Shown here: positions 7,090 through 50,846 of the stretch, piece by piece
How the letters are laid out: each line of letters begins with the position of its first letter
Numbering within the stretch: position 1 is the first letter of the stretch
NCBI GenBank assembly: GCA_029265815.1
Contig: JAJUGU010000002.1
Coordinates: 274,061-333,896 of the forward strand
Reading direction: 5' to 3'
Source: Anaerolineaceae bacterium
GTDB lineage: Bacteria; Chloroflexota; Anaerolineae; Anaerolineales; Anaerolineaceae
DNA length: 59,836 nucleotides
Position numbers and translations under genes: made by a program
Notes under the pieces: model-generated
What the model saw: only the letters and a program-made list of their open reading frames with translations
Databases searched by the model: none
What the model was told of the DNA's origin: nothing

Positions 7090-8624
7090 TATTTCGAGAA
7101 GGAAATTTTATCGCACTGCTGATCATCGGTGCCCTGGTCTTGGTGGCGATCTTGACCGCAGTACTGGTGAAAATAATTGTTGATAAATATAAAAAAGAGC
7201 AATCTGAGAAAGCTGAAAATGTGATTCAATCAGCGGTCGAAAAAGCCAAGATAATTGAATTGGAGGCGAAGGATAAAGCCCTAAAAATTCTGCAGGATTC
7301 GGAGATCGAAATCACCCGACGCAGACAGGATATCTTGCGCGAAGACGATCGCCAGCAAAAACGCCGGGCGGAACTTGATCACCGCATCGAGCGCCTGGAA
7401 ATACGAGAGCAGAACCTTAATAAACGTCAGAGCGCGTTGGACAAGCGCAGTAATGAGATCGAAAAACTGTACATTGAACAGATGGAAGAGCTTCAACGCG
7501 TCGCACAAATGACGATGGAAGATGCCAAGCAGGTACTTCTGGCGGAGGCTGAAAAAGAAGCCCGTAATGATATGGCGAGAATTATCCGTCAGATCGAAGC
7601 TGAAGCCAGGATTGAAGGTGACAAACGGGCACGCGAGATCATTACCGACGCTATTCAACGCGTGGCATCTGAACATGTTGTTAGTGTATCTACGTCTTTG
7701 GTAACTCTACCGAATGAAGAAATGAAGGGGCGAATTGTTGGCCGTAACGGAAGAAATATCCGTGCCTTCGAACAGGCAGCGGGAGTGGATGTGATCGTGG
7801 ATGATACCCCCGAAGCTGTGACCATATCATGCTTTGATCCTGTAAGGCGCGAGATTGCCCGCCGTACACTGGACCGCTTGATCGTTGATGGCAGGATTCA
7901 CCCTGCACATATCGAGAAGATCCTCGCAGAGGAACAAAAGGAAGTTGAAAAGGCGATCATCGAAGCCGGTGAGAACGCGGCTTTTGATGCAGGGGTTGCC
8001 GGCATGCACCCTGAAATCTTGAAGATGTTAGGGCGGTTGAAATTCCGTACCTCTTATGGTCAAAACCAACTGGCGCATGCGGTAGAAGTTGCCAAACTTT
8101 CAGCAGTACTGGCTGCAGAACTAGGGGCAGATGTTGAAGTTGCGCGGGCAGGCGGTTTATTGCATGATCTCGGCAAGGCGATGGATCATAATACTGAAGG
8201 AACACATGCACAATTAGGCGCGGAGTTTGCCCGACGTTATGGTGTTAATTCCAAAGTGGTGAACGCCATGGCCTCACATCATCACGAGGTGGAACAGGAA
8301 TCTATCGAAGCTGTTATTGTTGAAGCCGCTGATGCCATCTCAGGTGCGCGTCCTGGAGCTCGCAGAGAGGATCTCGAACAATACATCAAGCGTCTGCGCG
8401 CGTTGGAGGAAATTGCCAATTCCTTCAAAGGTGTCCAGCAATCCTATGCTATTCAGGCTGGCCGTGAAGTGCGCATCCTGGTACAACCAGAAGAGATTGA
8501 CGACCTGGCTTCCGTTCGTCTGGCACGTGATATTGCCAAAAAGGTCGAGGAAACCATGCAGTATCCCGGTCAGATTAAAGTCACAGTCATTCGTGAAACA
8601 AGGGCTGTTGAATTTGCTAAATAA
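7086..8624 (+). CDS. rny: Ribonuclease Y
   Basis: A 512-residue endoribonuclease that starts mRNA decay at the membrane. Order of parts: N-terminal transmembrane helix (about 7-28), a long charged coiled coil (30-190, repeated Glu/Arg/Lys heptads), a KH RNA-binding domain (about 200-265, GRIVGRNGRNIRAFEQAAGV), then the HD phosphohydrolase domain with HDLGK near residue 359 and HHHE further on. Length and order fit the family exactly. It shares an ATGA overlap with recX and ends in a strong terminator. Linkage of recX and rny also brings to mind the recA-recX-rny order known from other bacteria, though recA is not here. Confidence 0.95.
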   Translation: MIFREGNFIALLIIGALVLVAILTAVLVKIIVDKYKKEQSEKAENVIQSAVEKAKIIELEAKDKALKILQDSEIEITRRRQDILREDDRQQKRRAELDHRIERLEIREQNLNKRQSALDKRSNEIEKLYIEQMEELQRVAQMTMEDAKQVLLAEAEKEARNDMARIIRQIEAEARIEGDKRAREIITDAIQRVASEHVVSVSTSLVTLPNEEMKGRIVGRNGRNIRAFEQAAGVDVIVDDTPEAVTISCFDPVRREIARRTLDRLIVDGRIHPAHIEKILAEEQKEVEKAIIEAGENAAFDAGVAGMHPEILKMLGRLKFRTSYGQNQLAHAVEVAKLSAVLAAELGADVEVARAGGLLHDLGKAMDHNTEGTHAQLGAEFARRYGVNSKVVNAMASHHHEVEQESIEAVIVEAADAISGARPGARREDLEQYIKRLRALEEIANSFKGVQQSYAIQAGREVRILVQPEEIDDLASVRLARDIAKKVEETMQYPGQIKVTVIRETRAVEFAK

Positions 8625-8639
8625 ACAAATTTAAGAGAT

Positions 8640-8673
8640 AAAGGCTGCCATACATTTATGGCAGCCTTTTTTT
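8640..8673. terminator. Bidirectional intrinsic terminator
   Basis: A perfect 13-bp stem (AAAGGCTGCCATA and TATGGCAGCCTTT) with a CATT loop, followed by five Ts on the plus strand. It lies between rny and the converging MBL hydrolase gene, whose stop is at 8674. On the minus strand the left flank also gives a short U-containing tail. Confidence 0.9.
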
Positions 8674-9351
8674 CTACTCAGAAAAATCTTGATCATCTAA
8701 TTTGAGATCTGAATGAGACCCGACATACGGATTGTTTTCCATTTCCTCACCAACGGTCGTGTTCGGCCCATGCCCCGGAATCAAAATTGTTTCGGGTGGA
8801 AGACTGAATACCCGCCTGTGCACACTCTCTTGAAGCGATTTGAAACTACCACCATCTAGATCGGTTCGACCGATTCCGCGGTGAAAGATCAGATCGCCCA
8901 CAATGGCAGTGTTCAGATCGGGAATGTAATAGATCACTGAGCCTGGTGAATGGCCTGGTGTATGTCGGATTTCGATCTCACTATTACCGAGGATGAGATG
9001 CTGACCATCCTCAAGCATGATATTGGGATCGCAGGGTGGTTCGATGAGAGCTCTAAACTGTCGCGATCCACCACCATCACGCCAGATAGCGAGGTCATCT
9101 GCATGAAGACCGATCCCTGGCTCAGCAGGCAGTTTAGAGAGCAGGTAGGATAATCCGGCAAAATGATCAAAATGACCATGAGTGAAGAGCACAGCTTTGA
9201 CAGTCAATCTATTCTGATCAATTACTCTCAAAATGTCTTCAATTCCAAACGATGGATCAAATAAAAAACATTCCTTTGAAGCATCATCGAAGATTAGAAT
9301 CACATTGTTTTGCAATGGACCGGCACAAAAGACTTTAATTTGCAGACTCAT
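8674..9351 (-). CDS. Metallo-beta-lactamase-fold hydrolase, glyoxalase II-like
   Basis: A 225-residue single-domain protein. The zinc-binding pattern is complete: H58, H60, D62 and H63 (THGHFDH), H134 in HTPGHSPGS, D153 and H194 in IPGHG. Spacing and the GRTD motif match the short glyoxalase-II-like group (YcbL type), which hydrolyses thioesters such as S-lactoylglutathione analogues. The true substrate is unknown. The start overlaps the MFS gene by 17 bases and it is the last gene of a four-gene minus-strand operon ending at the terminator at 8640. Confidence 0.85.
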   Translation of the reverse strand: MSLQIKVFCAGPLQNNVILIFDDASKECFLFDPSFGIEDILRVIDQNRLTVKAVLFTHGHFDHFAGLSYLLSKLPAEPGIGLHADDLAIWRDGGGSRQFRALIEPPCDPNIMLEDGQHLILGNSEIEIRHTPGHSPGSVIYYIPDLNTAIVGDLIFHRGIGRTDLDGGSFKSLQESVHRRVFSLPPETILIPGHGPNTTVGEEMENNPYVGSHSDLKLDDQDFSE

Positions 9352-10489
9352 GGATATTGTTTTTCTTCCTCTGGATGGTATAGAGAATAAACAAGTTGAG
9401 CAGGATGACCGCAGCGATCATCCAACCGGAAACGGTGTACATTGAATAAGGTTCCTTGCTATACAATACCCCAGCCAGGATTGGGGCTGTGATTACAGCT
9501 ATTGAGTTTGCTGTTTCGATCATGCCAAATGCAGTTCCGGTTTGTCCCGGATGCACAAGAGAACGCGAGACAGCAAGCACCATAGAACGGCAGAGGCGAT
9601 ATCCACCCATAAAGAAATATCCCACTCCAAACCAGGCCGCAGAATTCCCCTTGATGTAAATGAGCGCAAAAATGAGAACCCATATCTGGCCGACCAGAAA
9701 ACCGGTGAAAGCATTTAGATTTCCAAAAACCAGCATTGCTACTGCGTTGCCAAGGCTACCCATCGCGCCAAGCAAGCCAATTGTTGTTCGGGAAAGCTGC
9801 TGTTGGTTTTGTAAGAAATTTGGGGTCAACGGCTGCGGCAGGTAGATAGCAAACATGGTAATTGCGGTTAAAACCAAGAAAGCAAGAAAACGATAGTTGT
9901 TCAATATACCTTTTGGTTGAGTTGAGATTTGATCTGCATGATGCGGTTCGGGTCGCTTTGCCGTGAGAAAGATGATGATGGTTGAAATGAGAAAGAGGAC
10001 TCCTGCGAAATTGTAAATTATCTTAAGTCCAAACCTATCAGCAATAAATCCGCCGGTGACAGGTCCCACAACTGCGCCAAGATTGAAAAAGCCAGAACAC
10101 AAAGAAATGGCACGTCCAACCCCCATGTTTCCTCGTACGGAAGTGATATAGCTATTCATTGGGGCAACGACGAACCCTGTTAAGCCATAGAGAATAACTC
10201 CGACTACGAAGGCAGGCAGAGACCAGGCTATAGCCATAATCCAGGTGGCAATTGTTCCTAATACCCATGTCGAAATCATTAAGGATCGTGAACCAAATCG
10301 ATCTGAGAAATAGCCTGATGGAATCTGTGCTGCTGCCAAGACGATTCCCATGGCGCTATAAATCTTGCCAATCATCAACGGATCAGCTCCCCATTCCTGT
10401 AAATATAAGGGTTGAAAGTAGATGAATAACCCTTCGCCAATCCCCCAGATGAAGAGGGATAAAGCAACCAGGAAAAGGTTGCGATTCAT
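9335..10489 (-). CDS. Major facilitator superfamily transporter
   Basis: A 384-residue protein with about 12 hydrophobic segments. The loop between helices 2 and 3 carries the MFS signature (GYFSDRFGSRSLM), and the second half has a weaker copy. The length is typical of the small drug/sugar efflux-type families. The substrate cannot be told; the neighbours (alpha/beta hydrolase, M24 peptidase, MBL hydrolase) do not fix it. Its start codon overlaps the upstream stop by one base (TAATG), a sign of coupled translation. Confidence 0.85.
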   Translation of the reverse strand: MNRNLFLVALSLFIWGIGEGLFIYFQPLYLQEWGADPLMIGKIYSAMGIVLAAAQIPSGYFSDRFGSRSLMISTWVLGTIATWIMAIAWSLPAFVVGVILYGLTGFVVAPMNSYITSVRGNMGVGRAISLCSGFFNLGAVVGPVTGGFIADRFGLKIIYNFAGVLFLISTIIIFLTAKRPEPHHADQISTQPKGILNNYRFLAFLVLTAITMFAIYLPQPLTPNFLQNQQQLSRTTIGLLGAMGSLGNAVAMLVFGNLNAFTGFLVGQIWVLIFALIYIKGNSAAWFGVGYFFMGGYRLCRSMVLAVSRSLVHPGQTGTAFGMIETANSIAVITAPILAGVLYSKEPYSMYTVSGWMIAAVILLNLFILYTIQRKKNNIHESAN

Positions 10490-11253
10490 TAGATTTCAGC
10501 CGTCCTGTGAATTAAAGATTTCACTGCTGTGAAAACCGTTTCACGTTCTGGTTCACAGATAATCACATGACCACTGTTTTCAAGCCATAAGGTGGTCTTG
10601 TCTTTGGAGGAGATGTTCTTATAAATATATTCAAGGCTTTCTGGTGGGATCGATCGATCTCCTTTGGATTGAACGATTAGGGCAGGAATATCAATATTCG
10701 TCAACTCCTCTTTCATGACATTCATTAGTTTTATTAATTCAAGGACCGCGCGTGATGGGTAATATGGATAATCAATATGAACTTTTTCCCATTCAAGATT
10801 ATGCCAGTCCGGTGTTCCTTTTCCAGCATGGAAATTAAGCCAGCCAACCAGTGGCAGTAGTTTTGTGCGCGGATCAGCTGGTAGATTGATGGGAGTTGAA
10901 AAGGCTACCACTCCGGTGAAGGGGTAACGCGCTGCAGCAATCAATGCAAGGATTCCCCCCATAGAGAGTCCCATCACAAACTGCTTATCTGTGCTGCCTT
11001 TGAGCAGGTTAAGACCATCCTCAACTGAAACCAGCCAATCTTGCCACCGTGCAAAGCGCATATCGGCGGGATTTGTAGCGTGGCCAAAAAGCCTTGGAGC
11101 CAGAACGGTATATCCACTTGCAGAAAGTGATTCTCCAAGCAGCCGCATCTCTTTTGGGGTTCCAGTGAAGCCATGGATTAAAAGACATCCGATCTTTCCA
11201 CCGGGAAGAAAAAAAGGTTCAGCAGTTGGGATTGTGAATGCCTTGGGCATCAT
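10489..11253 (-). CDS. Alpha/beta hydrolase (carboxylesterase or lysophospholipase-like)
   Basis: A 254-residue serine hydrolase. The nucleophile elbow GLSMGG places Ser97. An HGFTGTPKEM stretch near residue 27 is the oxyanion-hole loop, the acid is probably the Asp in QSKGDRSIPP, and His lies in NSGHVI. These patterns fit the Est30/monoacylglycerol-lipase-like carboxylesterases, cytoplasmic enzymes that cleave short or medium chain esters. There is no signal peptide. It follows the M24 peptidase gene after 12 bases and overlaps the MFS start by one base. Confidence 0.85.
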   Translation of the reverse strand: MMPKAFTIPTAEPFFLPGGKIGCLLIHGFTGTPKEMRLLGESLSASGYTVLAPRLFGHATNPADMRFARWQDWLVSVEDGLNLLKGSTDKQFVMGLSMGGILALIAAARYPFTGVVAFSTPINLPADPRTKLLPLVGWLNFHAGKGTPDWHNLEWEKVHIDYPYYPSRAVLELIKLMNVMKEELTNIDIPALIVQSKGDRSIPPESLEYIYKNISSKDKTTLWLENSGHVIICEPERETVFTAVKSLIHRTAEI

Positions 11254-11265
11254 ATTCTCCGTGAA

Positions 11266-12369
11266 TCAAAGAATTGTCAGATCGCGCGAAATATCACTGA
11301 GCGATTCGCAGCCTGTGGGTGTTATGAGGATATTGTCTTCAATACGCACCCCACCCATGCCCGGGAGGTAAATACCGGGTTCTACCGTGTAAGTCATGCC
11401 AGGAGCCAGGATCTGGTCGTTTTTGCCAAAGATATATGGCGATTCATGATCCTCCAAGCCCAGACCATGCCCGGTGCGGTGAGTGAAATAATCACCGAAT
11501 CCTGCGGATTCGATCACGTTTCGCGCTGCTTGGTCAACCGATCCTGCTGCTTTTTCTGGAGCGCCGGCTGCTCTGCCCGCTGCATTTGCCTGATTTACCA
11601 CGTTAAAAATTTTTTCCAGTTCTGGCGCCAAGCTGCCTACGGCAAAAGTGCGGGTGAGATCGGAACAATATCCATTTGATCTTGCCCCCCAGTCGATAAC
11701 CACAAGGTCACCATTTTGAATCTCACGCTCGGTAGGTATAGCATGGGGATTGGCGCTGTTCGGACCGCTGGCGACAATCGGAGAGAAAGGTAATTCAGGA
11801 TCAGACCCCATGCGCAGCATTTGAATGGTTAATTCAGCGGCGATCTCTTTTTCGGTGACTCGAGGTTTGATCATGGGAAGAACAGCTTTTAACGCCTCCT
11901 GTGCAATTTGAACCGCGCGGCGCATTTCTTTGATTTCTTCTTCGTCCTTCAAGATGCGCAGACTTTCACAAATCTTTTCTGCAGAAACAAATTTTGCCAC
12001 CAAAATCGCTTTTTGTAGATAATCCAGCTCAAGAAAGCGCAGGCGTGTGGGTTCAACACCAATGGTCGATCCTTCAAGGTTGTAACGATGACTGGCATAG
12101 GTGAAAACTTTCTGCCAGGTGGATGGGTCATCGTTAAAAGTAAGAGGGGTCAGAGGAATTCGCGAGGCGGAAAGTTTTCCAGCTTCTAACTCTGGCAGGA
12201 GGATCAACGGGTCATGTGTTTTTGTAATGATCAGGACGGTTGGCCGTTCCATCAGGTGTAAGGAAAGTCCCGTCAGATAGGTAAATACCGGACCTGGATT
12301 TAATGCAAGTGCTTTAATCTGATATTGATCCATTAATTTTAGAAGGTGCGCAAATCGCGGGTCAGTCAT
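11266..12369 (-). CDS. M24-family aminopeptidase (Xaa-Pro peptidase type)
   Basis: A 367-residue protein with the pita-bread fold. An N-terminal creatinase-like domain covers about residues 1-130. The metal ligands of the C-terminal domain are all visible: Asp in VVIDWGA, Asp in CSDLTRTF, His in HRTGHGLG, Glu in TVEPGIY and Glu in GVRIEDN. Family members remove an N-terminal residue next to proline or cleave Xaa-Pro dipeptides. Which of the two is not shown by sequence alone. AAGGAGG precedes the ATG, and a good promoter (12387-12415) precedes that. It heads the operon with the hydrolase, the MFS transporter and the MBL hydrolase. Confidence 0.88.
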   Translation of the reverse strand: MTDPRFAHLLKLMDQYQIKALALNPGPVFTYLTGLSLHLMERPTVLIITKTHDPLILLPELEAGKLSASRIPLTPLTFNDDPSTWQKVFTYASHRYNLEGSTIGVEPTRLRFLELDYLQKAILVAKFVSAEKICESLRILKDEEEIKEMRRAVQIAQEALKAVLPMIKPRVTEKEIAAELTIQMLRMGSDPELPFSPIVASGPNSANPHAIPTEREIQNGDLVVIDWGARSNGYCSDLTRTFAVGSLAPELEKIFNVVNQANAAGRAAGAPEKAAGSVDQAARNVIESAGFGDYFTHRTGHGLGLEDHESPYIFGKNDQILAPGMTYTVEPGIYLPGMGGVRIEDNILITPTGCESLSDISRDLTIL

Positions 12370-12386
12370 CGATGCCTCCTTGAGAA

Positions 12387-12415
12387 ATTATAGTCTGAAG
12401 AGAACAATGTTGCAA
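12387..12415 (-). promoter_or_regulatory. Promoter of the M24 peptidase operon
   Basis: Read on the minus strand: TTGCAA, a 17-base spacer, TATAAT. This leaves a short leader carrying the AAGGAGG ribosome binding site. Confidence 0.6.
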
Positions 12416-12511
12416 AGTAAGGGTCATGAATGTTATTTCAGCAGTGTTGCAGGAACTTTCATCTGGAAAATTCGTCTGGTAGAAGATTATTGTACACAAA
12501 AGGAGAAGAAG

Positions 12512-13111
12512 ATGAAAAAAATTTGGGTAATTATTCAAATATTGCTTTTGTTGATGATTCTGGCTGCTTGCTCAAAAACAGATCCAATAACCATTACTCC
12601 AACAGAATTTGTTCCGACTCAGACACAACCAGTGCTAACGCTGGAGCCTGTAACTGAGGAACTGCCGAAATTCCCGCTAGTATATACTGACGAAACTGCC
12701 GGGATTCAAATATTTTATCCAGCAGACTGGACCCAATCAGAGAATCAGGTGATTGGAGAAAGAGGTTCCCAAACAGCGCTTCTATCACCTGGAAGCAGCA
12801 TTGAAAAAGTTGCAGATGGTGGTGCACGGATCATTCTCGTCACATATCGATGGGATCCTAAAAATGAATTGGATGCTTTCGTTGCTCAACGAAAAACTGC
12901 CTGGGAAGCAAGCGGCTTTACGATTCAGAAAGAAGAAGTCAGGGATCTGGGAAATGGTAAGAAAATGATCGTTTTTCAGATTGAAACCAGTGATCAAACA
13001 AATGTCATATATGCGTTTACAACTTCAGGAGAAGATTATCTTCAGATTAGCGGAGATGGTGACCTCGAGCTTTGCCGGAAAATTCTTGAGAGCGTTACAA
13101 TTGTTCAATAG
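12512..13111 (+). CDS. Lipoprotein of unknown function
   Basis: 199 residues from the ATG at 12512, chosen because AAGGAGAAG precedes it and it gives a proper lipoprotein signal: MKK, a hydrophobic run, then the lipobox LAAC with Cys20. A Thr/Pro-rich spacer (about 25-60) leads to a compact domain starting at AGIQIFYPADW, which resembles the PsbP-like or DUF-type fold found in surface lipoproteins. The protein should be attached to the outer face of the membrane. It is transcribed away from the M24 operon, with about 140 bases between the two start codons. Confidence 0.75.
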   Translation: MKKIWVIIQILLLLMILAACSKTDPITITPTEFVPTQTQPVLTLEPVTEELPKFPLVYTDETAGIQIFYPADWTQSENQVIGERGSQTALLSPGSSIEKVADGGARIILVTYRWDPKNELDAFVAQRKTAWEASGFTIQKEEVRDLGNGKKMIVFQIETSDQTNVIYAFTTSGEDYLQISGDGDLELCRKILESVTIVQ

Positions 13112-13213
13112 CGAAAAAAGAACTTGATTGAAAACTGGGTTTGATTAAAAATCATGATAATTATGGTCAAGTTATGGATATAATTTGAATAAAGCGCATA
13201 GAAAGGAGAAGAG

Positions 13214-13753
13214 ATGAGTCAGGCAACGAATGATTTAGTTCATGAACATGATGCTATTATTTCAGCGTTGTACATCCTGGATCGTATGATCGATGGTGCG
13301 GAAATCGAAAATGAAATCGATCCTGAGGATATGACCACTTTCATCGACTTTCTCAAGGAATTCGCAGATAAATGCCACCATGGCAAAGAGGAAGGGGTTC
13401 TCTTCCCGGCAATGGTGGCTGCAGGTGTTGCAGAGTCTGGTGGGCCAATTGGAGTTATGCTGAAGGAACATACGGAAGGCCGCAGATTGATACAGGAGAT
13501 GACCCTATCCATGACGGGTGAAACCGACGTAGAAAGGTTGAGTAAGGCTGCCCGTGATTATGCCATACTGTTACGTGGTCATATCCAGAAAGAAAATACG
13601 GTCTTATTCCCAATGGCCGACAGAGTGCTTGATGATAAAAAACTAACTGAAATCTATCAGGCATTTGTTGACCACGAAGAAAAGGTCATCGGTCACGGCC
13701 GGCATAAAGAACTGCACGCTATACTTGAGCGTCTTAATGAAAAATATTCTTGA
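13214..13753 (+). CDS. Hemerythrin-like (HHE) protein
   Basis: A 179-residue, mostly helical protein with the His/Glu pattern of hemerythrin domains: HEHD near residue 10, CHHGKEEGVLFPAM (about 56-70), EHTEGRRL (about 85) and HIQKENTVLFPMADR (about 120-134). These residues bind a di-iron centre. Such proteins sense or store oxygen, nitric oxide or iron, which would suit an organism exposed to occasional oxygen. AAAGGAGAAGAG precedes the ATG. A TATAAT box at 13179-13184 is a likely -10. The gene stands alone between the lipoprotein and the tRNA genes. Confidence 0.88.
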   Translation: MSQATNDLVHEHDAIISALYILDRMIDGAEIENEIDPEDMTTFIDFLKEFADKCHHGKEEGVLFPAMVAAGVAESGGPIGVMLKEHTEGRRLIQEMTLSMTGETDVERLSKAARDYAILLRGHIQKENTVLFPMADRVLDDKKLTEIYQAFVDHEEKVIGHGRHKELHAILERLNEKYS

Positions 13754-13816
13754 TGAGGGTTCGATAGGGAATTGTCCAATAAATCGTGAATAAACAACGG
13801 AGTTGCTGACATTTCC

Positions 13817-13846
13817 TTGACAATACCGCCTTTATTCGGGTAAAAT
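13817..13846 (+). promoter_or_regulatory. Promoter of the tRNA-Ala/leuS unit
   Basis: TTGACA at 13817, an 18-base spacer and TAAAAT at 13841. Transcription would begin near 13853, about 12 bases before the first tRNA. Confidence 0.7.
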
Positions 13847-13864
13847 CCTTTCTGCATTTGTTAC

Positions 13865-13937
13865 GGGCCTGTAGCGCAGTTGGGAGCGCGCTTCAATCGC
13901 ACTGAAGAGGCCGGGGGTTCGAATCCCCCCAGGTCCA
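13865..13937 (+). tRNA. tRNA-Ala (CGC)
   Basis: A 73-base cloverleaf. The acceptor arms GGGCCTG and CAGGTCC include the G3:U70 wobble pair that identifies alanine tRNAs. The anticodon stem is CTTCA/TGAAG with loop ATCGCAC, so the anticodon CGC is at 13898-13900. The T arm is GGGGG/CCCCC with TTCGAAT. The CCA end is not encoded; the discriminator is A. Confidence 0.95.
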
Positions 13938-13970
13938 CTGGAGTCACCAGGCTCGAACAAAGCAAGAACC

Positions 13971-14043
13971 GGGCCCATAGCGCAGTTGGGAGCGCGTCTC
14001 AATGGCATTGAGAAGGCCGGGGGTTCGAATCCCCCTGGGTCCA
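13971..14043 (+). tRNA. tRNA-Ala (GGC)
   Basis: A 73-base cloverleaf with acceptor arms GGGCCCA and TGGGTCC, again with G3:U70. The anticodon stem is TCTCA/TGAGA with loop ATGGCAT, anticodon GGC at 14004-14006. D and T arms are nearly identical to the CGC gene 33 bases upstream, which points to a duplication. CCA is not encoded. The leuS T-box leader begins about 15-20 bases downstream with no terminator between. Confidence 0.95.
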
Positions 14044-14057
14044 CTCAAGCAAAATCA

Positions 14058-14300
14058 GGAGTAGTAGGTCATTCGTCAGCGAGCCGGGAGAGAGAGGTGT
14101 GAGCCCGGCAGGTATTGCGAAATACAGCAGACCGAACTCGCCTGACCTCCGAAAGGATAGCTTTTCTGGCGAATCAAGTAACCAGAAACGGGTGTGCCCG
14201 TTATCGCGAATGAAGCGGTCTGCGTTGCAATGCAGACAAGCAGGGTGGTACCGCGGAGAATTCCTTCGTCCCTGATCGGGAGAAGGGATTTTATTTTTAA
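14058..14300 (+). promoter_or_regulatory. T-box leader (leucine-specific) of leuS
   Basis: Stem I is closed by AGGTCA (14066-14071) and TGACCT (14143-14148). The specifier loop reads GAACTCGCC, with codon CTC (Leu) at 14137-14139, matching the gene that follows. The conserved T-box sequence AGGGTGGTACCGCGG lies at 14242-14256. Its TGGT would pair with the uncharged tRNA 3' end, the T matching discriminator A. A terminator hairpin follows (14262-14294, arms around TCCC/GGGA and TCCTTC/GAAGGGA) with a TTTTATTTTT tail. When uncharged tRNA-Leu binds, the antiterminator forms and leuS is read. This is established T-box behaviour; the leucine specificity is read directly. Confidence 0.95.
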
Positions 14301-14316
14301 AGAATTGGAGTAGAGA

Positions 14317-16770
14317 ATGGCTCAAAAAATACCAGGTTACAATCCAAACGAGATCGAAAGTAAATGGCAGCAGAAATGGGAAACTGACGATCTCTACGAA
14401 TCGAACATCGATGAGACCCGTAAGAAATATTATGCGCTGACCATGCTTCCATACCCTTCAGGAGACCTCCATATTGGTCACTGGTATGCCATTTCGCCTT
14501 CTGATGCTCGCGCACGATTCAAGCGGATGAACGGCTATAACGTGCTTTTCCCGATGGGTTTTGATGCCTTTGGTTTACCTGCTGAAAATGCTGCTATCAA
14601 GCGGAACATCCATCCCAAGACCTGGACCTATGCCAATATTGAGCGGATGCGCAAGCAGTTTAAAAGCATGGGTGCGATGTTTGATTGGCGGCGTGAAATT
14701 ATTTCCTCCGATGAAAAATATTACCGGTGGACACAGTGGTTTTTCTTGCAGCTCTATAAAAAGGGTCTGGCCTATCGAAAAATGTCACCGGTAGACTGGT
14801 GCCCGAACTGTAATACCACACTTGCACGCGAACAGGTATGGGGTGAGGACCGTCATTGTGAACGATGCGGTACTCCAGTCATTAAGAAGAACCTGGATCA
14901 GTGGTTTTTCCGAATTACCAATTATGCTGATGAGTTAATCCATTATGAAGGCATCGATTGGCCTGAGCGTGTACGTGTTCTGCAGACAAATTGGATCGGA
15001 AAATCAGAAGGTGCGCTGGTAACTTTTAAAACCGAAGCCGGCGACGAGATGGAAATTTTTACTACCCGCCCTGATACCCTTTGGGGGGTAACGTTCATGG
15101 TGCTCGCTCCTGAACATCCATTGGTGGAGAAATTGACCACACCTGAACAACGAGCTGAAGTTGAACAATATGTTCTCGATGCATCACGCCAATCAGATAT
15201 TCAACGTGAGGCAGCCGACAAAGAAAAAACCGGTGTTTTCACTGGCGGCTATGCCATCAATCCTGTAAATGGTGAAAAGATTCCAGTGTGGATCGCTGAT
15301 TATGTGCTGATGACCTATGGTACAGGGGCTATTATGGCTGTTCCTGCTCATGACCAGCGTGATTTTGAGTTTGCTCGAAAATTCGGTTTACCAATCAAAA
15401 TTGTTATCCGTCCGCAGGGCATCTCTATTCTCGAAAGTGAAGATGATATGACCATGGCTATTCCAGCCAGTGGTACGATGGTGAATTCTGGGCCATTAAC
15501 AGGAACGCCGGGTGATCAATCCTTTACGAGGGCGATCGAATATATTCAATCAAAGGGTATCGGTAAAGCTGCAACGAATTTTCGGCTGCGCGACTGGCTG
15601 ATCTCACGCCAGCGTTACTGGGGTTCGCCTATCCCTATGATCCACTGTCCGCAATGTGGAGCAGTGCCGGTACCAGAAGATCAATTGCCAGTTACGCTGC
15701 CTGAAGATGTGGAGTGGAAACCCACAGGCGAAAGCCCGCTAAAACTGCATCCAACCTGGCGCTTTGTCACCTGTCCAAATTGCGGCGGTAAAGCGGAACG
15801 CGAAACTGACACCATGGATACATTTATGTGTTCTTCCTGGTACCATTTGCGATACCTTAGCCCAAATTTTGATAAAGGGCCTTTTGACCCAAAGGAATAT
15901 GATTACTGGATGCCGGTTGATACGTATACCGGTGGGATTGAACACGCCAATATGCATCTGATCTATACCCGCTTTTTCCATAAAGCAATGCGTGATATCG
16001 GGGTGACGGAAGGGAATGAACCAATGCTGCAGTTGCGCAACCAGGGCATGGTGCTGGGTGAAGATTGCGAGAAAATGTCGAAAAGCCGTGGAAACGTGGT
16101 TGCTCCTGATGACCTGGTGAAATCGTATGGCGCTGATACTTTGCGGGCATATCTGATGTTCTTTGCCCGCTGGGATATGGGTGGACCTTGGAGCAGCGGC
16201 GGTATTGACGGGGTTGCCAGGTGGCTGCGGAGAGTTTGGTCAATGCTGCTAGAACCATGCGCAAAAGGGTCACCCTCTGAGGTTTCTGTGAAAGCCCTGC
16301 GGCGAAAAGTTCACCAGACGCTGAAAGCCGTGACCCGTGATTTTGAAGAATTTGAGTTCAATACCATCATTTCGAGTTTAATGGAATTGTCGAATGAGAT
16401 GGTAAGCACAAAATCTGTGCTTTACGGTTCACCGGCCTGGGAGGAAGCCACAGAAATCTATGTCAAGATGCTGGCACCGGTTGCCCCGCATATCGCAGAA
16501 GAAATCTGGGAGCGGATGGGAAAACCATATTCTATCCATACATCTAGCTGGCCTAAGGTAGATGATGTAGCTGCTGCTGTAGAAGAAATCACTCTTGTGA
16601 TTCAGGTGAATGGGAAGGTACGCGATCGTGTAACGGTCGCTGTTGATGTCAGTGAAGAGGATGCCAAGGCGACAGCACTTGCCAGTGAGACAATTCGAAA
16701 GATGTTGGAGGGCAAAGAACCACGACAGGTAATCTATGTAAAAGGGCGCCTGGTCAACATCGTCATTTAA
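14317..16770 (+). CDS. leuS: Leucyl-tRNA synthetase
   Basis: An 817-residue class I synthetase that charges tRNA-Leu. The HIGH motif is at about residue 51 and KMSKS at about 585. Between them lie the zinc-type insertion (CPNCNTTLAREQVWG and CERCG) and the editing CP1 domain with TTRPDTLWG and GTGAIMAVPAHD. The C-terminal VNGKVRDRV stretch is the domain that contacts the tRNA. Length and order match bacterial LeuRS. The ATG has GGAG upstream. Expression is controlled by the leucine T-box leader just before it. A 13-bp hairpin follows the stop. Confidence 0.98.
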   Translation: MAQKIPGYNPNEIESKWQQKWETDDLYESNIDETRKKYYALTMLPYPSGDLHIGHWYAISPSDARARFKRMNGYNVLFPMGFDAFGLPAENAAIKRNIHPKTWTYANIERMRKQFKSMGAMFDWRREIISSDEKYYRWTQWFFLQLYKKGLAYRKMSPVDWCPNCNTTLAREQVWGEDRHCERCGTPVIKKNLDQWFFRITNYADELIHYEGIDWPERVRVLQTNWIGKSEGALVTFKTEAGDEMEIFTTRPDTLWGVTFMVLAPEHPLVEKLTTPEQRAEVEQYVLDASRQSDIQREAADKEKTGVFTGGYAINPVNGEKIPVWIADYVLMTYGTGAIMAVPAHDQRDFEFARKFGLPIKIVIRPQGISILESEDDMTMAIPASGTMVNSGPLTGTPGDQSFTRAIEYIQSKGIGKAATNFRLRDWLISRQRYWGSPIPMIHCPQCGAVPVPEDQLPVTLPEDVEWKPTGESPLKLHPTWRFVTCPNCGGKAERETDTMDTFMCSSWYHLRYLSPNFDKGPFDPKEYDYWMPVDTYTGGIEHANMHLIYTRFFHKAMRDIGVTEGNEPMLQLRNQGMVLGEDCEKMSKSRGNVVAPDDLVKSYGADTLRAYLMFFARWDMGGPWSSGGIDGVARWLRRVWSMLLEPCAKGSPSEVSVKALRRKVHQTLKAVTRDFEEFEFNTIISSLMELSNEMVSTKSVLYGSPAWEEATEIYVKMLAPVAPHIAEEIWERMGKPYSIHTSSWPKVDDVAAAVEEITLVIQVNGKVRDRVTVAVDVSEEDAKATALASETIRKMLEGKEPRQVIYVKGRLVNIVI

Positions 16771-40572: not shown

Positions 40573-40751
40573 AAAACTACCCTGCTGTGTTCGTGATGTT
40601 GCAACACCGGTTTTGAGCCAACACTCACAAAACGGATCCTTCACTCGTTAGGGTTACGCGATAGGCTTCGGCCAAGGCGGATCTCTATGGCAGGATCCAC
40701 CTGCTTCGGCAGGTTCAAAACTATGCAACACACGGCATGGCGGGGTCTTTT
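40573..40751. repeat. Imperfect palindromic element, MITE-like or structured RNA
   Basis: Left arm 40573-40619 and right arm 40712-40751 are long imperfect complements. TGTTGCA pairs with TGCAACA, TTTTGA with TCAAAA, and ACCC near the left end with GGGT near the right end. The centre has strong hairpins (GGC-TTCG-GCC and ACCTGC-TTCG-GCAGGT) and repeated GGATC/GATCC words. No open frame of note lies inside. Whether it is a dispersed repeat or an RNA cannot be decided without other copies. Confidence 0.6.
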
Positions 40752-44559: not shown

Positions 44560-45765
44560 ATGAACAGCACTCGAAACCGAAAAATTCTCCATCTTGATCT
44601 TGACGCGTTCTTTTGTGCGGTTGAAGAACAAAAAAACCCATCGCTTGCAGGCAAGGCGTTTGCCGTGGGGGGGAAACCCGGTCAGCGCGGCGTGATCTCC
44701 ACCTGTTCGTATGCTGCGCGGCGTTTCGGGGTGCATTCTGCCATGCCCACCGGGCAGGCGTTGCGTCTTTGTCCGAATCTGATCTTGATCTCCAGTAATT
44801 TTGGTGATTATTCCGCCAAATCTCATGCTGTAATGGAGATTTTGCATAACCTGAGTGGTTTAGTGGAACAGGTTTCAGTGGATGAAGCCTTTGTAGACGT
44901 TACAGACCTTGCAGAAGATGGTGAAACAATAGCGCGTCAACTTCAAGAAAAGGTGAGAATTGAAACCGGTCTTCCCTGTTCGATCGGGGTAGCGTCGAAT
45001 AAACTGGTGGCTAAAATTGCCACTGATACTGGAAAATCGCGCAGCCAGAACGCAGATTATCCGCGGGCGATCCTGGTGATACCACCGGGAAAGGAAGCCG
45101 AGTTCCTGGCACCACTTCCAGTAAAGGCGATGTGGGGGGTTGGACCAAAGATGGAAGCCAGCCTGGAGGCATTGGGGCTGCATACCATTGGAGACATCGC
45201 AGCGTATCCAGAGGGTATGCTGGTGCATAAGTTTGGCAAGGTTGGAGCAGAACTGCACCAGCATGCGCTGGGAATCGACAACCGTCCGGTGACAGTGGAA
45301 TACGAGGTCAAATCCATCAGTCAGGAAGTCACATTTGAAAAAGATACACTTGACCTGACCTTTCTCAGGCGAAAGGTGAAAGAACTTTCAGCGAAGGTGG
45401 GGTACCGCATGCGCTGTGAAGGAGTATGCGCACGGGTGATTCGCATCAAATTGCGCTGGTCAGATTTTTCAACACATACACGACAGGTGGCCCTTCCTCA
45501 GCCCACTGACCAGGATGGTGTAATCGCAGAGACAGCTGAGACCCTGTTGATGAAATTGTGGCAGAATGACCGGCCAGTGAGGCTGATTGGGGTGGGCGGC
45601 GCAAACCTGACGGAACGAGTGCACCAGATGACTCTGTGGGAGACACCGTCAGAGAAGGAGCGTAAGCTGCTGACCGCATTGGATGATTTACGGGAGAGGT
45701 ACGGAAAGGGAGCGATACAACACGGTGACCGGATAAAACCGGAACCAGATAAAAAAGGCAGATGA
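44560..45765 (+). CDS. dinB: DNA polymerase IV (Y-family)
   Basis: A 401-residue translesion polymerase. Catalytic carboxylates lie in HLDLDAFFCAVEE (about 12-24) and SVDEAFVDV (about 107-115). The helix-hairpin-helix WGVGPKMEASLEALGLHTIGDIA (about 190-212) and the little-finger domain follow. It copies damaged templates with low fidelity. The C-terminus is longer than the minimum and lacks a clear beta-clamp box at the very end. Its promoter is directly at the start codon. Confidence 0.95.
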   Translation: MNSTRNRKILHLDLDAFFCAVEEQKNPSLAGKAFAVGGKPGQRGVISTCSYAARRFGVHSAMPTGQALRLCPNLILISSNFGDYSAKSHAVMEILHNLSGLVEQVSVDEAFVDVTDLAEDGETIARQLQEKVRIETGLPCSIGVASNKLVAKIATDTGKSRSQNADYPRAILVIPPGKEAEFLAPLPVKAMWGVGPKMEASLEALGLHTIGDIAAYPEGMLVHKFGKVGAELHQHALGIDNRPVTVEYEVKSISQEVTFEKDTLDLTFLRRKVKELSAKVGYRMRCEGVCARVIRIKLRWSDFSTHTRQVALPQPTDQDGVIAETAETLLMKLWQNDRPVRLIGVGGANLTERVHQMTLWETPSEKERKLLTALDDLRERYGKGAIQHGDRIKPEPDKKGR

Positions 45766-45790
45766 TTGTGGAAGAAATCTGTCTTATCGC

Positions 45791-45820
45791 TTGCGTATTC
45801 TAGAGGGGTGCTGATATAAT
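45791..45820 (+). promoter_or_regulatory. Putative promoter of tRNA-Thr
   Basis: TATAAT at 45815-45820, with a weak -35 (TTGCGT) 18 bases before. A start near 45827 would give an 11-base leader. Confidence 0.5.
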
Positions 45821-45837
45821 TCGGGAAGTCTTGATGC

Positions 45838-45910
45838 GCCACCGTAGCTCAGTTGGCAGAGCAGCCGCTTCGTAAGCGGCGGGTCAAGGGTTCGACTCCC
45901 TTCGGTGGCT
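45838..45910 (+). tRNA. tRNA-Thr (CGT)
   Basis: A 73-base cloverleaf. Acceptor arms GCCACCG and CGGTGGC, anticodon stem GCCGC/GCGGC with loop TTCGTAA, anticodon CGT at 45871-45873, T arm AAGGG/CCCTT with TTCGACT. CCA is not encoded; the discriminator is T. Its 3' part is copied in the tandem repeats directly downstream. Confidence 0.95.
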
Positions 45911-46143
45911 CTGATTAATTAAAATGGCGGGTCAAGGGTTTCCTGGCAAGAACAGCCAGGACTCGCACCAAGCGCTCGCGACTCCCTTCGGTGGCTCTGA
46001 TTAATTAAAAATGGCGGGTCAAGGGTTTCCTGGCAAGAACAGCCAGGACTCGCACCAAGCGCTCGCGACTCCCTTCGGTGGCTCTGATTAATTAAAATGG
46101 CGGGTCAAGGGTTTCCTGGCAAGAACAGCCAGGACTCGCACCA
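45911..46143 (+). repeat. Tandem repeats derived from the 3' half of tRNA-Thr
   Basis: Three head-to-tail units: 45911-45996 (86 bases), 45997-46083 (87, one extra A) and a 3'-truncated 46084-46143 (60). A full unit is a 15-base A+T-rich spacer (starting CTGATTAATT), then the tRNA-Thr 3' segment GGCGGGTCAAGGGTT, a 38-base insert, and the tRNA end CGACTCCCTTCGGTGGCT. The insert falls inside the T loop and contains a hairpin (CCTGGC-AAGAACA-GCCAGG). Units are identical apart from the extra A and the truncation. Confidence 0.9.
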
Positions 46144-46654
46144 TGCAGCAAATATCACAGTTCAATTGAAATCAAAAAAATATCGTTTCAACCGATTCAT
46201 ACGACGGCTTTTGTAGGGATAAAAACGTGCTTGCTCCAACATAAGGTTTGAATATTTTGCCATTATGGATTGATTATTCACTAGTAATTTGTATAATATT
46301 TGCAAAAGGTGGAAAAATAATTTTTAAGGGGATTAATAAATGCTCTTTATGTGTTCGAGAGCAACAAAGAACTCCATATTTGCCTTCATAGAGAATAAAC
46401 CCTAAAAGATACCCATATTGTTTTTTAAGGAAGGACAGTATCTGGAACTTTGCCTTTCAAAAAAATCATGATCTATGTAACAAAAATTGAAAAAGTAAAT
46501 AGGTATGGGGAAAAAGTTGTCAATCTTGGTTTCTTTGGCGTTGTGATGAGAAGCGGATTCTAAACAAGGCACATGGAAATTTTATTGTTGGTGTTAATAA
46601 GGTTCAATGGATGAACTAACCCAATAGCAAAAAAATTACAAAAGGGGATTAATT
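46144..46654. other. A+T-rich region without a supported gene
   Basis: About 510 bases, clearly richer in A and T than the flanks. A 21-codon frame (46340-46405) shares the leader AAGGGGATTAAT with the next gene. A 31-codon frame (46468-46563, starting MIYVTKIEKV) and a 15-codon frame in another phase (46572-46619) could be pieces of a decayed gene. None is convincing by itself. Confidence 0.5.
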
Positions 46655-47833
46655 ATGAAAAAATGTCCATATTGTGCAGAAGAAATTCAAGATGAAGCGA
46701 TCTATTGCCGTTATTGCAAGCACGATCTGCCAGTTTCCCAATCGAGGCAGATCGTGGCTGATGAGCTTCCTCAAGATTTAACAAAGAATGAGAAAGATAA
46801 ATCTGGTCGAGCAATTTTCTTTCTATTTGTCATTGCACTTGTTGTAATGATTGCTTTTGCGACTGGTTCACAACAGAAAGAAGGTCCTCATGCGGATGGC
46901 CAATCAACTACACAGTCTGGATCGGGTGGGAAAACCTATGAAATCTTATATTCAACAGATTTTTCTTCAAATGATGGATGGTGGCTGGAAAAATCAGACA
47001 ATTCATCTGATTTTGACATGGTAAATGGGAAATATAAGATTTATTCCAGAGAGAAAGGGATGATTATATGGTCACATCTGCCAAAGGAATTTGATGATGC
47101 CATTTTGAAAGTTGATTTGCTTTGGAGCTCCAGTAATCTTTCGGATTCGGCAGGATACTTCATTGCTTGGCGACAAATGGACGAAAATAATTATTACGGA
47201 TTAACGATATTTGGAAATGGCTCGATATATGTTAATAAGGTGGTAAATGGTAAAGATATCGAATTGTTTTCTGCTGCATCTGGATTGGTGCAATTTAGGT
47301 CAAATGAAAATCCAGTAATGATTGCTTTTGATGATTCGAGAATCAAGATTTTCATCAATGATCAATTGGTTGCTTCATTGGTAGATACATCATTATCAAA
47401 TGGAAATATCGGACTGGGTGTCGCAACAAATACTGCTGATAGTTCTACGGTAGCATTTGATAACCTGACAGTCTACTCCATAGGAGCTTCAGATCAGGTA
47501 CTTCCAAAAACTAAAGCTACGCCATTACGGCTACCAACTGTCACACCTACAGTTCGCAATTCTTGTGAGATCTGGTCAGAAATTTCAACAGATGATGTTG
47601 GTAAATCAATGTGTGTTTATGGTACGGTTCGAAATGCCTATTTTAGTGAGAGTCTAGGAGCCTTTGTTTTTACTTTTTCAGCAGATCCTAAAGCTTTCTA
47701 CCTCATTAAGCACGATAATGTTTATTGGGATGATGTCGTAGGAAAATGTGTGATGGTAACGGGTAAAATCCAAAAGTATTATCAGACTCCGTATATTGAA
47801 ATTAAAGAGGACTACGTCTATTTATGCGATTGA
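46655..47833 (+). CDS. Zinc-ribbon membrane protein with LamG-like and OB-like regions, unknown function
   Basis: A 392-residue protein. The zinc ribbon ([18 protein letters not shown], residues 4-21) is at the N-terminus, followed by a hydrophobic helix (about 52-70). The outer part begins with a Gly/Ser-rich stretch, then a region resembling a DUF1080/LamG jelly roll (about 100-275, with [15 protein letters not shown] and [11 protein letters not shown]), and a C-terminal domain of about 90 residues resembling an OB fold (about 300-392). AAGGGG precedes the ATG. Codon use is more A/T-rich than in neighbouring genes, which fits a horizontally gained gene. The function is unknown. Confidence 0.75.
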
Positions 47834-49017: not shown

Positions 49018-49553
49018 AATTAACCGGCTGGCGGTTGACCGTTTTGCGAGTAGCGGTGCTGCTGGCCGTTATCGGTTTATCTATCCTACTTTTTCTGAAC
49101 AGAGATAAGGTACAAAAGCTTGAGGGGTTCGGTTATCCGGGTATCTTCCTCGTTTCGCTTCTCTCCAATGCAACCCTGATCCTTCCTGTACCGGGTGTGT
49201 TGTTTACATCTGCTATGGGAGCAGTTTTCAATCCTTTCTTTGTTGCACTTTGCGCAGGTACGGGGGCAACGTTGGGGGAACTTTCCGGCTATTTGGCGGG
49301 TTTCAGCGGGCAGGGGGTTATCGAGAATCGGTCGTGGTACAACTGGGTGACGAATTGGATGAAGAAGTACGGAGATATTACCATTCTCGTCATGGCGTTT
49401 ATTCCCAATTCACTCTTCGATATTGCGGGGATGGTTGCTGGAGCGATGCGTATGAAACTATGGCGCTACTTGCTTTTTAGCTGGATTGGGAAAACCGCTA
49501 AGATGATGGTATTTGCTTACGGGGGGGCATCCATCCTTACGCTGTTTAAATAG
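49014..49553 (+). CDS. VTT-domain (DedA/SNARE-associated-like) membrane protein
   Basis: A 179-residue membrane protein. Hydrophobic segments lie at about 8-28, 42-60, 66-90, 125-145 and 150-175. The middle carries the VTT/DedA pattern GATLGELSGYLAGFSG (about 83-98) and a later segment with AFIPNSLFDIAGMVAG. Family members act as lipid scramblases or flippases or handle membrane stress. It starts inside the udk stop. Its own stop lies one or two bases from the 3' end of the converging rnpB. Confidence 0.82.
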   Translation: MKLTGWRLTVLRVAVLLAVIGLSILLFLNRDKVQKLEGFGYPGIFLVSLLSNATLILPVPGVLFTSAMGAVFNPFFVALCAGTGATLGELSGYLAGFSGQGVIENRSWYNWVTNWMKKYGDITILVMAFIPNSLFDIAGMVAGAMRMKLWRYLLFSWIGKTAKMMVFAYGGASILTLFK

Positions 49554-49554
49554 T

Positions 49555-49968
49555 CAGGCCAGCCGATAAGCCGCATTCTGTTGCTTGAGAGGGTATGCCA
49601 GAGGCACGGCTCTCAAACTGACGGTCATCTCTCTAGGCCGAATGTTGCCATTCGGCTCATGCAGCCTACCCGGGACTCATAAGAAAACGAGCCGCTTCCC
49701 GCCGCCCTCTAAAGGGCGGGCATGGTCCCTGCTTGGCCTTGCTCCCATCGAGGGTTGCCTGGCCGCCGTATTACTACGACGCCGGTGGTCTCTTACACCA
49801 CCATTTCACCCTTGCCATTGGAATGGCGGTATGTTTCTGTGGCCCGATCTGGCAGGTTCTTCCCCAGGGGGAATCCCCGCCCCGGACGTTATCCGGCGAT
49901 GTGCTCTGTGGAGTGCGGACTTTCCTCGGCGTTGAAATCAACGCCGCGACCATCTGGCTGGCCTGATG
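49555..49968 (-). ncRNA. rnpB: RNase P RNA
   Basis: The RNA component that removes 5' leaders from tRNA precursors. Read on the minus strand, the 5' region holds GAGGAAAGTCCGCACTC and the 3' end AGAATGCGGCTTATCGGCTGG, the two conserved cores. The P1 helix pairs CAGGCCAGCC at the 5' end (plus 49956-49965) with GGCTGGCCTG at the 3' end (plus 49555-49564). The length of about 410 bases suits a bacterial type A RNA. A promoter lies directly upstream. Ends may be off by a few bases. Confidence 0.95.
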
Positions 49969-49973
49969 GTTCC

Positions 49974-50002
49974 ATCATACCTTTTGTGCGTTACTTCGTC
50001 AA
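49974..50002 (-). promoter_or_regulatory. Promoter of rnpB
   Basis: Read on the minus strand: TTGACG, a 17-base spacer and TATGAT. Start of transcription near 49967, at the 5' end of the RNA. Confidence 0.75.
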
Positions 50003-50087
50003 TCTTATCTGTTTGGATTTCATACGCGAGTCTGAAACAAAAAGTTATATAATTGCGGAGATAAATCCTATTTATGGCGAGGTGCTT

Positions 50088-50846
50088 ATGAGAAAACCAA
50101 TGGTGGCTGGAAACTGGAAAATGAACAAAACGGTGGATCAGGCCAGTGTGCTGGTGCAGGAACTACTTCCAGGCCTTAAGAACGTTCCCGAAGTGGAGAG
50201 GGTCATTTGTCCTCCGTTTACTTCTTTGATGATCCTCGCCGCGCAATTAGAGGGTTCAGGTGTTGGTTTGGGTGCCCAGAATTTGCACTGGGAAGCCTCT
50301 GGTGCTTATACTGGTGAAATTTCACCCCAGATGGTGCGAGAATTTTGCCAATATGTGATCATCGGACATTCAGAGCGCCGCACCTATTTTGGTGAGACAG
50401 ATGAATCTGTTAATAAAAAACTAAAAGCTGCCCTGGCACTGGGTTTAATCCCGATCGTATGTATAGGTGAGACTCTCGAAGAATATGAGGCTGGCAAGAC
50501 GGGTGAAGTTGTTACCCGACAGGTAATGGAAGGGTTTAAAGAAATCGATCCATCACTGGCTTCTACGATCGTTGTGGCTTATGAGCCGGTTTGGGCGATT
50601 GGTACAGGCAGGGCGGCTACTGGCGAGGGAGCAAATGCAGTGCTTCGTGATCATATTCGACCTGCGTTAGCGAAGCTTTTTGGTTCTGCTATCGCCCAAA
50701 ACGTTCGGATTCTCTATGGCGGGTCGGTCAATGCTGCCAATGCTGCAGAGTTTTTTGAACAACCCGAGATCGATGGAGCGCTGGTAGGTGGTGCAAGCCT
50801 TAAATCAGCAGAATTTATTAAAATTGTTGAAGCAGCAAAAAAATAA
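50088..50846 (+). CDS. tpiA: Triosephosphate isomerase
   Basis: 252 residues from the ATG at 50088 (GAGGTG before it). An upstream in-frame extension over the rnpB gene is not real. Catalytic residues are Lys in AGNWKMNKT, His in IIGHSERR and Glu in VAYEPVWAIGTG; the phosphate loop GGSVNAANA closes the barrel. It interconverts dihydroxyacetone phosphate and glyceraldehyde 3-phosphate. TATAAT at 50048 is a probable -10. A terminator follows. Confidence 0.97.
   Translation: MRKPMVAGNWKMNKTVDQASVLVQELLPGLKNVPEVERVICPPFTSLMILAAQLEGSGVGLGAQNLHWEASGAYTGEISPQMVREFCQYVIIGHSERRTYFGETDESVNKKLKAALALGLIPIVCIGETLEEYEAGKTGEVVTRQVMEGFKEIDPSLASTIVVAYEPVWAIGTGRAATGEGANAVLRDHIRPALAKLFGSAIAQNVRILYGGSVNAANAAEFFEQPEIDGALVGGASLKSAEFIKIVEAAKK

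What the first reader, a model, noticed from the sequence alone, without database searches (positions are those of the whole stretch)
45838..46143. Tandem array built from the 3' half of tRNA-Thr with a 38-base insert in the T loop
Directly after tRNA-Thr(CGT) are two full units of 86-87 bases and one truncated unit. Each full unit copies the tRNA from the anticodon 3' stem through the T loop and acceptor end. A 38-base hairpin-bearing insert splits the T loop after its second base. The copies are identical apart from one A and the truncation. Integrases of islands often recombine in tRNA T loops and leave a 3'-end copy, so this could be a footprint of repeated integration or excision. It could instead be a tandem duplication, or a tRNA-like RNA array made from the tRNA promoter. 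An A+T-rich stretch follows. Sequence identity is seen; origin and function are inference.
Basis: partly seen in the sequence, partly recalled or inferred. Interest (0 to 1): 0.7.

Follow-up and report, generated by a model that had tools for sequence, protein, structure and literature searches.

The report
Repeated tRNA tails after tRNA genes
Behind this tRNA gene, and behind several others in the same bacterial family, lie copies of the tRNA's own tail, often in tandem and usually with a short insert in the loop where some viruses integrate; E. coli has one known example, and what these arrays do is not established.

Summary
The array is real: behind tRNA-Thr(CGT) (45838-45911) lie units of 86, 87 and 59 (truncated) bases, each holding the tRNA's 3' half with an insert (38 bases in the full units) between T-loop bases 55 and 56. 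It is not peculiar to this tRNA. In this genome 9 of 44 tRNA genes have a copy of their own tail within 400 bases (control 0 of 1652); in three named isolates, two with complete genomes, 5/40, 3/38 and 3/39, so the class is no assembly artefact. A phylum sample outside the family gave 0/51. In 30 of 37 cases the repeated part begins inside the T loop, in 16 exactly at C56. E. coli tyrTV (rtT) repeats share this build. In five genomes no tyrosine recombinase lies near a tail-copy tRNA, but in one relative a serine-recombinase element sits between tRNA-Thr and its units. A terminator precedes the first copy at 12 of 22 genes, against a general RNA role. Inserts are conserved between species with near-saturated silent sites; some are shared between different tRNAs. 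Best reading: T-loop-anchored tRNA-tail repeats made by recombination; origin and function are inferred.

The parts
45838..45911 (+). tRNA-Thr(CGT) gene, intact, source of the copied tail (ARAGORN end includes one base past the discriminator)
45912..45997 (+). unit 1, 86 b: A+T-rich spacer, T-arm 5' part, insert, tRNA tail
45926..45940 (+). unit 1: copy of the tRNA from the anticodon-stem end to T-loop base 55 (GGCGGGTCAAGGGTT)
   Evidence: read from the sequence
45941..45978 (+). unit 1: 38-base insert in the T loop (7-bp stem, 7-base loop, then 17 bases)
45979..45997 (+). unit 1: copy of the tRNA from C56 to one base past its end
   Evidence: 19-base identity
45998..46084 (+). unit 2, 87 b, differs from unit 1 by one A in the spacer
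46028..46065 (+). unit 2: 38-base insert in the T loop
46085..46143 (+). unit 3, truncated: spacer, T-arm 5' part and first 30 bases of the insert (46114-46143)

Best explanation
The array belongs to a class of T-loop-anchored tRNA-tail repeats that recurs in Anaerolineaceae and has the same build as the rtT repeats behind E. coli tyrTV. SHOWN: a unit is the tail of the tRNA in front of it, a trailer, often part of the T arm, and usually an interrupted T loop with a short insert; in the Thr arrays of four species the units carry the same base 59 as their own tRNA; array size differs between relatives and an empty site exists. INFERRED: a copy of the tail first comes to lie downstream with its break in the T loop, as when a T-loop integrase displaces the 3' fragment; the copy carries an insert, often palindromic, in that loop; the array then grows, shrinks and is homogenised by homologous exchange through tail and trailer, the real tRNA's tail taking part, so that the tRNA stays intact and the copies follow it. 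On this reading it acts at the DNA level, as a set of broken T-loop sites downstream of the tRNA. Whether the insert is kept by selection or re-spread by recombination is open.
For: Own-tail copies (last 14 bases, at most 1 mismatch, within 400 b): G000 9/44, G010 3/32, Pelolinea submarina 5/40, Leptolinea HRD-7 3/38, L. tardivitalis 3/39; control with tails of other tRNAs 0/1652, 1/890, 0/1392, 0/1224, 0/1284. E. coli tyrV copies at 178, 356, 534 b, 19-base identity beginning at A58 in the T loop. Thr units follow base 59 of their own tRNA (C, A, T, C) in 4 of 4 genomes. The four carriers and the empty-site genome G005 form one side of a split with FastTree support 0.999. Thr insert 32/38 identical G000-G010 while four-fold sites are 0.311 identical, saturation 0.263. 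Distal trailer of the G012 Pro(ggg) array equals the tRNA-proximal trailer of G009. T loop as suggested strand-exchange site: PMC1762012 passages.
Against: 27 PF00589 matches in five genomes: none near a tail-copy tRNA by my reading of positions, while about eight lie within 2 kb of other tRNA genes. Insert patterns gave no viral element end. The T-arm 5' part in front of the insert is not expected in a plain displaced fragment. Junctions outside the T loop exist: 7 of 37; the Lys array of L. tardivitalis keeps an intact T arm. The 14-base match limits how far 3' a break can be seen, and orthologues are not independent. Other insert pairs are less alike (20/28, 14/28), and one unit each of G008 and G004 lacks the hairpin. 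The G012-G009 difference could be a deletion in G009.
Confidence: 0.4

Rival explanations
1. A selected RNA element: units are transcribed with the tRNA and released as small RNAs, as reported for E. coli rtT, or help to end transcription.
For: No terminator-like site in 45700-46700, so the Thr array could be transcribed; tRNA plus array RNA folds better than shuffles, z -2.13, but this includes the tRNA and repeated hairpins; insert conserved at near-saturated divergence; rtT is said to be released from the tyrT transcript (PMC4986893 passages). One A-T to C-G change on both sides of a stem pair in the Thr hairpin.
Against: A terminator precedes the first copy at 12 of 22 tail-copy genes (14 of 35 copy-free tRNA genes of G000 have one within 90 b). 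Single units fold no better than shuffles; covariation not beyond shuffles; stems pairing the insert side with the tail not beyond shuffles, 4 of 34 at p<0.05.
Confidence: 0.22
2. Neutral tandem duplication: a tRNA-tail pseudocopy with a chance palindromic insert, multiplied and lost by slippage and unequal exchange, without function.
For: Copy numbers vary, units decay in G004 and G008, empty sites exist; identical units within this array.
Against: The break falls in the T loop at many unrelated tRNA genes; the first-unit Pro(ggg) insert is 18/18 identical between G000 and G015 whose four-fold sites are saturated, 0.252 against 0.249; inserts of different tRNAs share words beyond shuffles.
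Confidence: 0.22
3. Decoy or changed landing site: the interrupted T-loop copies bind or divert tRNA-targeting integrases and so protect the tRNA or steer insertion.
For: Units copy the tRNA from near the variable loop to the end, break the loop suggested for strand exchange, and follow the tRNA sequence; array tRNAs and recombinase-adjacent tRNAs did not overlap in five genomes, but few cases make that expected by chance.
Against: In G004 an element with a serine recombinase did insert between tRNA-Thr and its units. No binding data.
Confidence: 0.1
4. Assembly artefact of a short-read draft genome.
For: Draft in 26 contigs; the tRNA-Gln array lies at the ends of contigs C14 and C3.
Against: Arrays of the same kind are contiguous in the complete genomes of Pelolinea submarina and Leptolinea sp. 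HRD-7 and in E. coli K-12; the Thr array recurs in separately assembled relatives.
Confidence: 0.02

Closest known systems
rtT / RttR repeats behind E. coli tyrTV (Rfam RF00391 RtT)
   Same: Tandem repeats directly behind a tRNA gene; each carries the tRNA tail (19-base identity beginning in the T loop) and, before it, the T-stem strand and TTCGA followed by a hairpin-rich insert.
   Different: Unit 178 b instead of 86-87; insert unrelated in sequence, no RtT match in the window; transcription known for rtT, untested here; one E. coli operon against several tRNA genes per genome here.
Displaced tRNA fragments of integrative islands (Islander type)
   Same: A 3' fragment of the tRNA lies downstream in the same orientation with its start in the T loop, a known crossover subsite (PMC4383910 and PMC1762012 passages).
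   Different: No island or integrase between tRNA and fragment in the window; units of under 100 b in tandem; Islander rejects candidates under 2 kb or without integrase.
Integrons / CRISPR arrays
   Same: Repeats next to a fixed site; in Pro(ggg) arrays of G006 and G012 successive units differ in trailer.
   Different: No integron integrase over cut-off in any of 16 genus genomes; this array has no open reading frame cassettes and no varying spacers.

Membership tests
rtT-type tRNA-tail repeats (architecture) | tandem repeats directly behind a tRNA gene, each with a copy of that tRNA's tail | tested here: met
rtT-type tRNA-tail repeats (architecture) | copy broken inside the T loop by a hairpin-bearing insert | tested here: met
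   window; E. coli
RtT RNA family RF00391 (sequence) | match to the Rfam covariance model | tested here: not met
   no RtT match in the window or at E<=10 in 45800-46700; E. coli gives four matches
RtT RNA family RF00391 (sequence) | RNA released from the tRNA transcript | not testable with these tools
   needs RNA data
Integrative island at a tRNA gene | tRNA and 3' fragment in the same orientation, break at a known crossover subsite | tested here: met
Integrative island at a tRNA gene | integrase gene and island between tRNA and fragment | tested here: not met
   tRNA and units are contiguous; G000 tyrosine recombinases lie on other contigs than this array
Integron | integron integrase | tested here: not met
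   0 of 16 genus genomes over the cut-off of TIGR02249
tRNA gene duplication | complete tRNA in each unit | tested here: not met
   ARAGORN and Rfam find one tRNA; units lack the 5' half

The most novel reading that the evidence does not exclude
T-loop-anchored tRNA-tail repeats are a general kind of bacterial DNA element of which E. coli rtT is one isolated known case: an insertion process repeatedly adds short non-coding modules (tRNA tail, new trailer, T-arm mimic with hairpin) at the T loop or 3' end of tRNA genes, newest next to the tRNA, and the interrupted T loop is kept by selection because it blocks, diverts or records integration.
Probability: 0.2. Interest if true: 0.85.

Novelty: new variant of a known kind. 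Interest (0 to 1): 0.62.

Why it matters
It links a single E. coli oddity (rtT) to many examples in another phylum with a shared, searchable anatomy: the break in the T loop. tRNA ends are among the commonest landing sites of mobile DNA. Short tail arrays without a nearby tyrosine recombinase either record past events at those sites at base resolution or show a way in which hosts change them. Island searches that ask for an integrase and at least 2 kb, as Islander does (PMC4383910 passages), would pass over them.

Tried and rejected
Folding as DNA: z -0.78 to -1.80.

Mobile source of the insert: viral contigs gave nothing for two patterns, 26 matches for a shorter one and 3 for a T-arm pattern, whose contexts I did not examine one by one, and 7 and 1 for the Pro/Val motifs, none with a tRNA or tail copy. 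Dispersed repeat: CCGCTGCGCTTCA 0 times in 1.54 Mb, CGCTTCGCTC 0 times in 0.29 Mb. Integron: no integrase over cut-off.

Other surveys, results against spread included: 45 tRNAs in 80 uridine-kinase loci, one with copies, G010 itself; 116 tRNAs in earlier loci, TRF arrays only at the G010 tRNA-Thr, counted three times in overlapping loci; eight loci of Anaerolinea thermolimosa among 30 isolate loci gave none. Family search with the unit model: 4 of 147 genomes have long matches, with the stricter filters used above 40 genomes.

Rows left out: junction table 37 of 39 (Ser(gga) of G004 and G010 had no 14-base tail match). tRNA genes examined against RF00005 matches: G000 44/44, G010 32/42, Pelolinea 40/48, HRD-7 38/44, L. 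tardivitalis 39/46. The tree is FastTree only; the second program left no tree file. Serine recombinases were not searched genome-wide.

Literature: ten searches listed no paper on such arrays outside rtT; the library lacks most subscription papers, and the 1991 rtT and 2002 sublocation papers are not held, so earlier description is not excluded. Five papers were seen only as listings and passages.

Full report
WHAT IS THERE. tRNA-Thr(CGT) lies at 45838-45911. Behind it are units at 45912-45997, 45998-46084 and, truncated, 46085-46143. A full unit reads: A+T-rich spacer; GGCGGGTCAAGGGTT, the tRNA from the last three bases of the anticodon stem to T-loop base 55; a 38-base insert with a perfect 7-bp stem, a 7-base loop and 17 more bases; and CGACTCCCTTCGGTGGCTC, the tRNA from C56 to one base past its end. 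The two full units differ by one A. TRF scores the array 493 with 98% matches. The array finds only itself and two other tRNA genes in this 2.58-Mb draft genome; the hairpin with up to 3 mismatches finds the three copies and one other match. No terminator-like site was found in 45700-46700.

THE SAME LOCUS IN RELATIVES. A covariance model of the units, searched over 147 genomes of the family with the stricter filters, gives long matches in 4, all of one genus: this genome, G010, G008 and G004; the other matches are 33-base matches that agree with the tRNA 3' half. G010 has three full units of 92-93 bases and a cut one. In G008 one contig ends just behind the tRNA and another begins inside a unit, as if the array had broken the assembly. 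In G004 an element of about 11 kb with a serine recombinase separates the tRNA from two decayed units. G014 has a tyrosine recombinase directly behind tRNA-Thr and no unit in the stretches held. In G005 and G003 the tRNA is followed closely by the uridine kinase gene: an empty site. On a four-protein FastTree tree the four carriers and G005 form one side of a split with support 0.999. At T-loop base 59 the host tRNAs of G000, G010, G004 and G008 read C, A, T, C, and the units agree with their own tRNA in all four. The insert is 32/38 identical between G000 and the first G010 unit and 26/38 between G000 and the better G004 unit, while four-fold degenerate sites of neighbouring genes are 0.31 and 0.34 identical, saturation 0.26; other pairs are less alike, down to 14/28. 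One unit each of G008 and G004 lacks the hairpin.

NOT ONLY THIS tRNA. I examined the surroundings of the 44 tRNA genes of this genome. Seven are followed by TRF arrays that start inside the tRNA. Nine have a copy of their own last 14 bases (at most one mismatch) within 400 bases; tails of other tRNAs as a control gave 0 of 1652. G010: 3 of 32 (control 1 of 890). Named isolates: Pelolinea submarina, complete, 5 of 40; Leptolinea sp. HRD-7, complete, 3 of 38; L. tardivitalis, draft, 3 of 39 (controls 0 of 1392, 1224 and 1284). Arrays there reach 8.6 units of 89 bases behind tRNA-Cys, 6.2 of 86 behind tRNA-Arg and 4.2 of 97 behind tRNA-Val; some copies are single. Of 51 tRNA genes sampled in the phylum outside the family none has such a copy. 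Within the genus, arrays follow Pro(ggg), Gly, Ser(gga), Met, Gln(ctg), Cys and Val tRNAs in various species. Because complete isolate genomes show them, the class is not an assembly artefact.

COMMON ANATOMY. Of 39 instances handed to the junction test, 37 gave a result. Identity between copy and tRNA begins inside the T loop (bases 54-60) in 30: exactly at C56 in 16 and at base 60 in 11; three begin further 5', four further 3'. The 14-base match under-counts breaks nearer the 3' end, and orthologues are not independent. Inserts of different tRNAs share words more often than shuffled inserts: 13 of 482 pairs share 8 or more bases, against a mean of 3.35 and a maximum of 8 in 60 shuffles; 4 share 11 or more, against 0.05 (one of the four includes tail bases, two involve orthologous Pro arrays). 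The longest, TTCCGCTGCGCTTCA, links Pro(ggg) arrays of G000 and G015 with the tRNA-Val array of Pelolinea. Four-fold sites between G000 and G015 are saturated (0.252 against 0.249), yet their first-unit Pro inserts are 18/18 identical. Close forms of the motif were not seen in flanking sequence. So inserts are either selected or re-spread between arrays. In Pro(ggg) arrays of G006 and G012 successive units have different trailers, and the distal trailer of G012 equals the tRNA-proximal trailer of G009. That fits a newer unit placed next to the tRNA; a deletion in G009 would look the same.

E. COLI HAS ONE. Behind tyrV in E. coli K-12 lie tail copies at 178, 356 and 534 bases with 19 bases of identity that begin at A58 in the T loop, and before them the T-stem strand and TTCGA followed by a hairpin-rich insert. 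One paper notes that rtT resembles BIME palindromic elements (PMC2965389, passage). The window array gives no RtT match: same architecture, not the same RNA family by sequence.

HOW IT MOST LIKELY WORKS. For phage Ms6, changes in the 7-bp T loop lower integration and strand exchange there is suggested (PMC1762012, passages); a displaced 3' fragment is the usual mark of islands at tRNA genes (PMC4383910, passages). I therefore think that copies arise when a T-loop event leaves a tRNA tail downstream, and that arrays are then multiplied and homogenised by homologous exchange through tail and trailer. The agreement with the host tRNA supports the second step; only the junctions support the first. 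Against the first: of 27 PF00589 matches in five genomes none lies near a tail-copy tRNA, while about eight lie within 2 kb of other tRNA genes (the expected overlap is small, so this is weak), and no insert was found at a viral element end. An RNA role is possible for tRNA-Thr, but a terminator precedes the first copy at 12 of 22 tail-copy genes, against 14 of 35 copy-free tRNA genes with one within 90 bases; unit folding, covariation and tail-pairing stems do not exceed their controls. The whole tRNA-plus-array RNA has z = -2.13, tRNA included.

VERDICT. Observation confirmed; interpretation partly supported. The local array is one of many, and the interest lies in the class: short tRNA-tail repeats with the break in the T loop, recurrent in one bacterial family and otherwise met here only as the rtT repeats of one E. 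coli operon.

Noticed in passing
L043 (G004:C61), about 4100-14970: An element of about 11 kb with a large serine recombinase (Resolvase, Recombinase, Zn_ribbon_recom) sits at the 3' end of tRNA-Thr, bounded by a 19-base repeat CCCTTCGGTGGCTCTTTGT read by eye; the recombinase frame runs into the tRNA gene. Islander's authors knew only tyrosine recombinases at tRNA genes (PMC4383910 passage).
   Followed up: partly
L046 (G014:C128) 5748-6677: A tyrosine recombinase gene lies directly behind tRNA-Thr with phage-like genes after it; no second copy of the tRNA tail was found in the stretches held.
   Followed up: partly
window 46655-47833 (+): A 392-aa protein with weak zinc-ribbon and 3-keto-disaccharide hydrolase-like matches (both below cut-off) lies between array and uridine kinase; a partial relative lies before uridine kinase in G014.
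   Followed up: partly
L317 and L318 (G012:C14 start, C11 start): Pro(ggg)-tail units lie at a contig start without a tRNA while the tRNA-Pro array runs to another contig's end, so one long array may be split; short-read drafts probably under-count such units.
   Followed up: partly
window 40576-40750 (+) and 49551-49965 (-): 6S RNA and RNase P RNA genes (Rfam matches over cut-off); open frames of 116 and 374 aa listed around 49585-50846 overlap the RNase P RNA.
   Followed up: no
L335 1501-1573 and downstream (Leptolinea tardivitalis): The tRNA-Lys array keeps an intact T arm in its units, with a hairpin placed in front of it: a variant of the class.
   Followed up: partly
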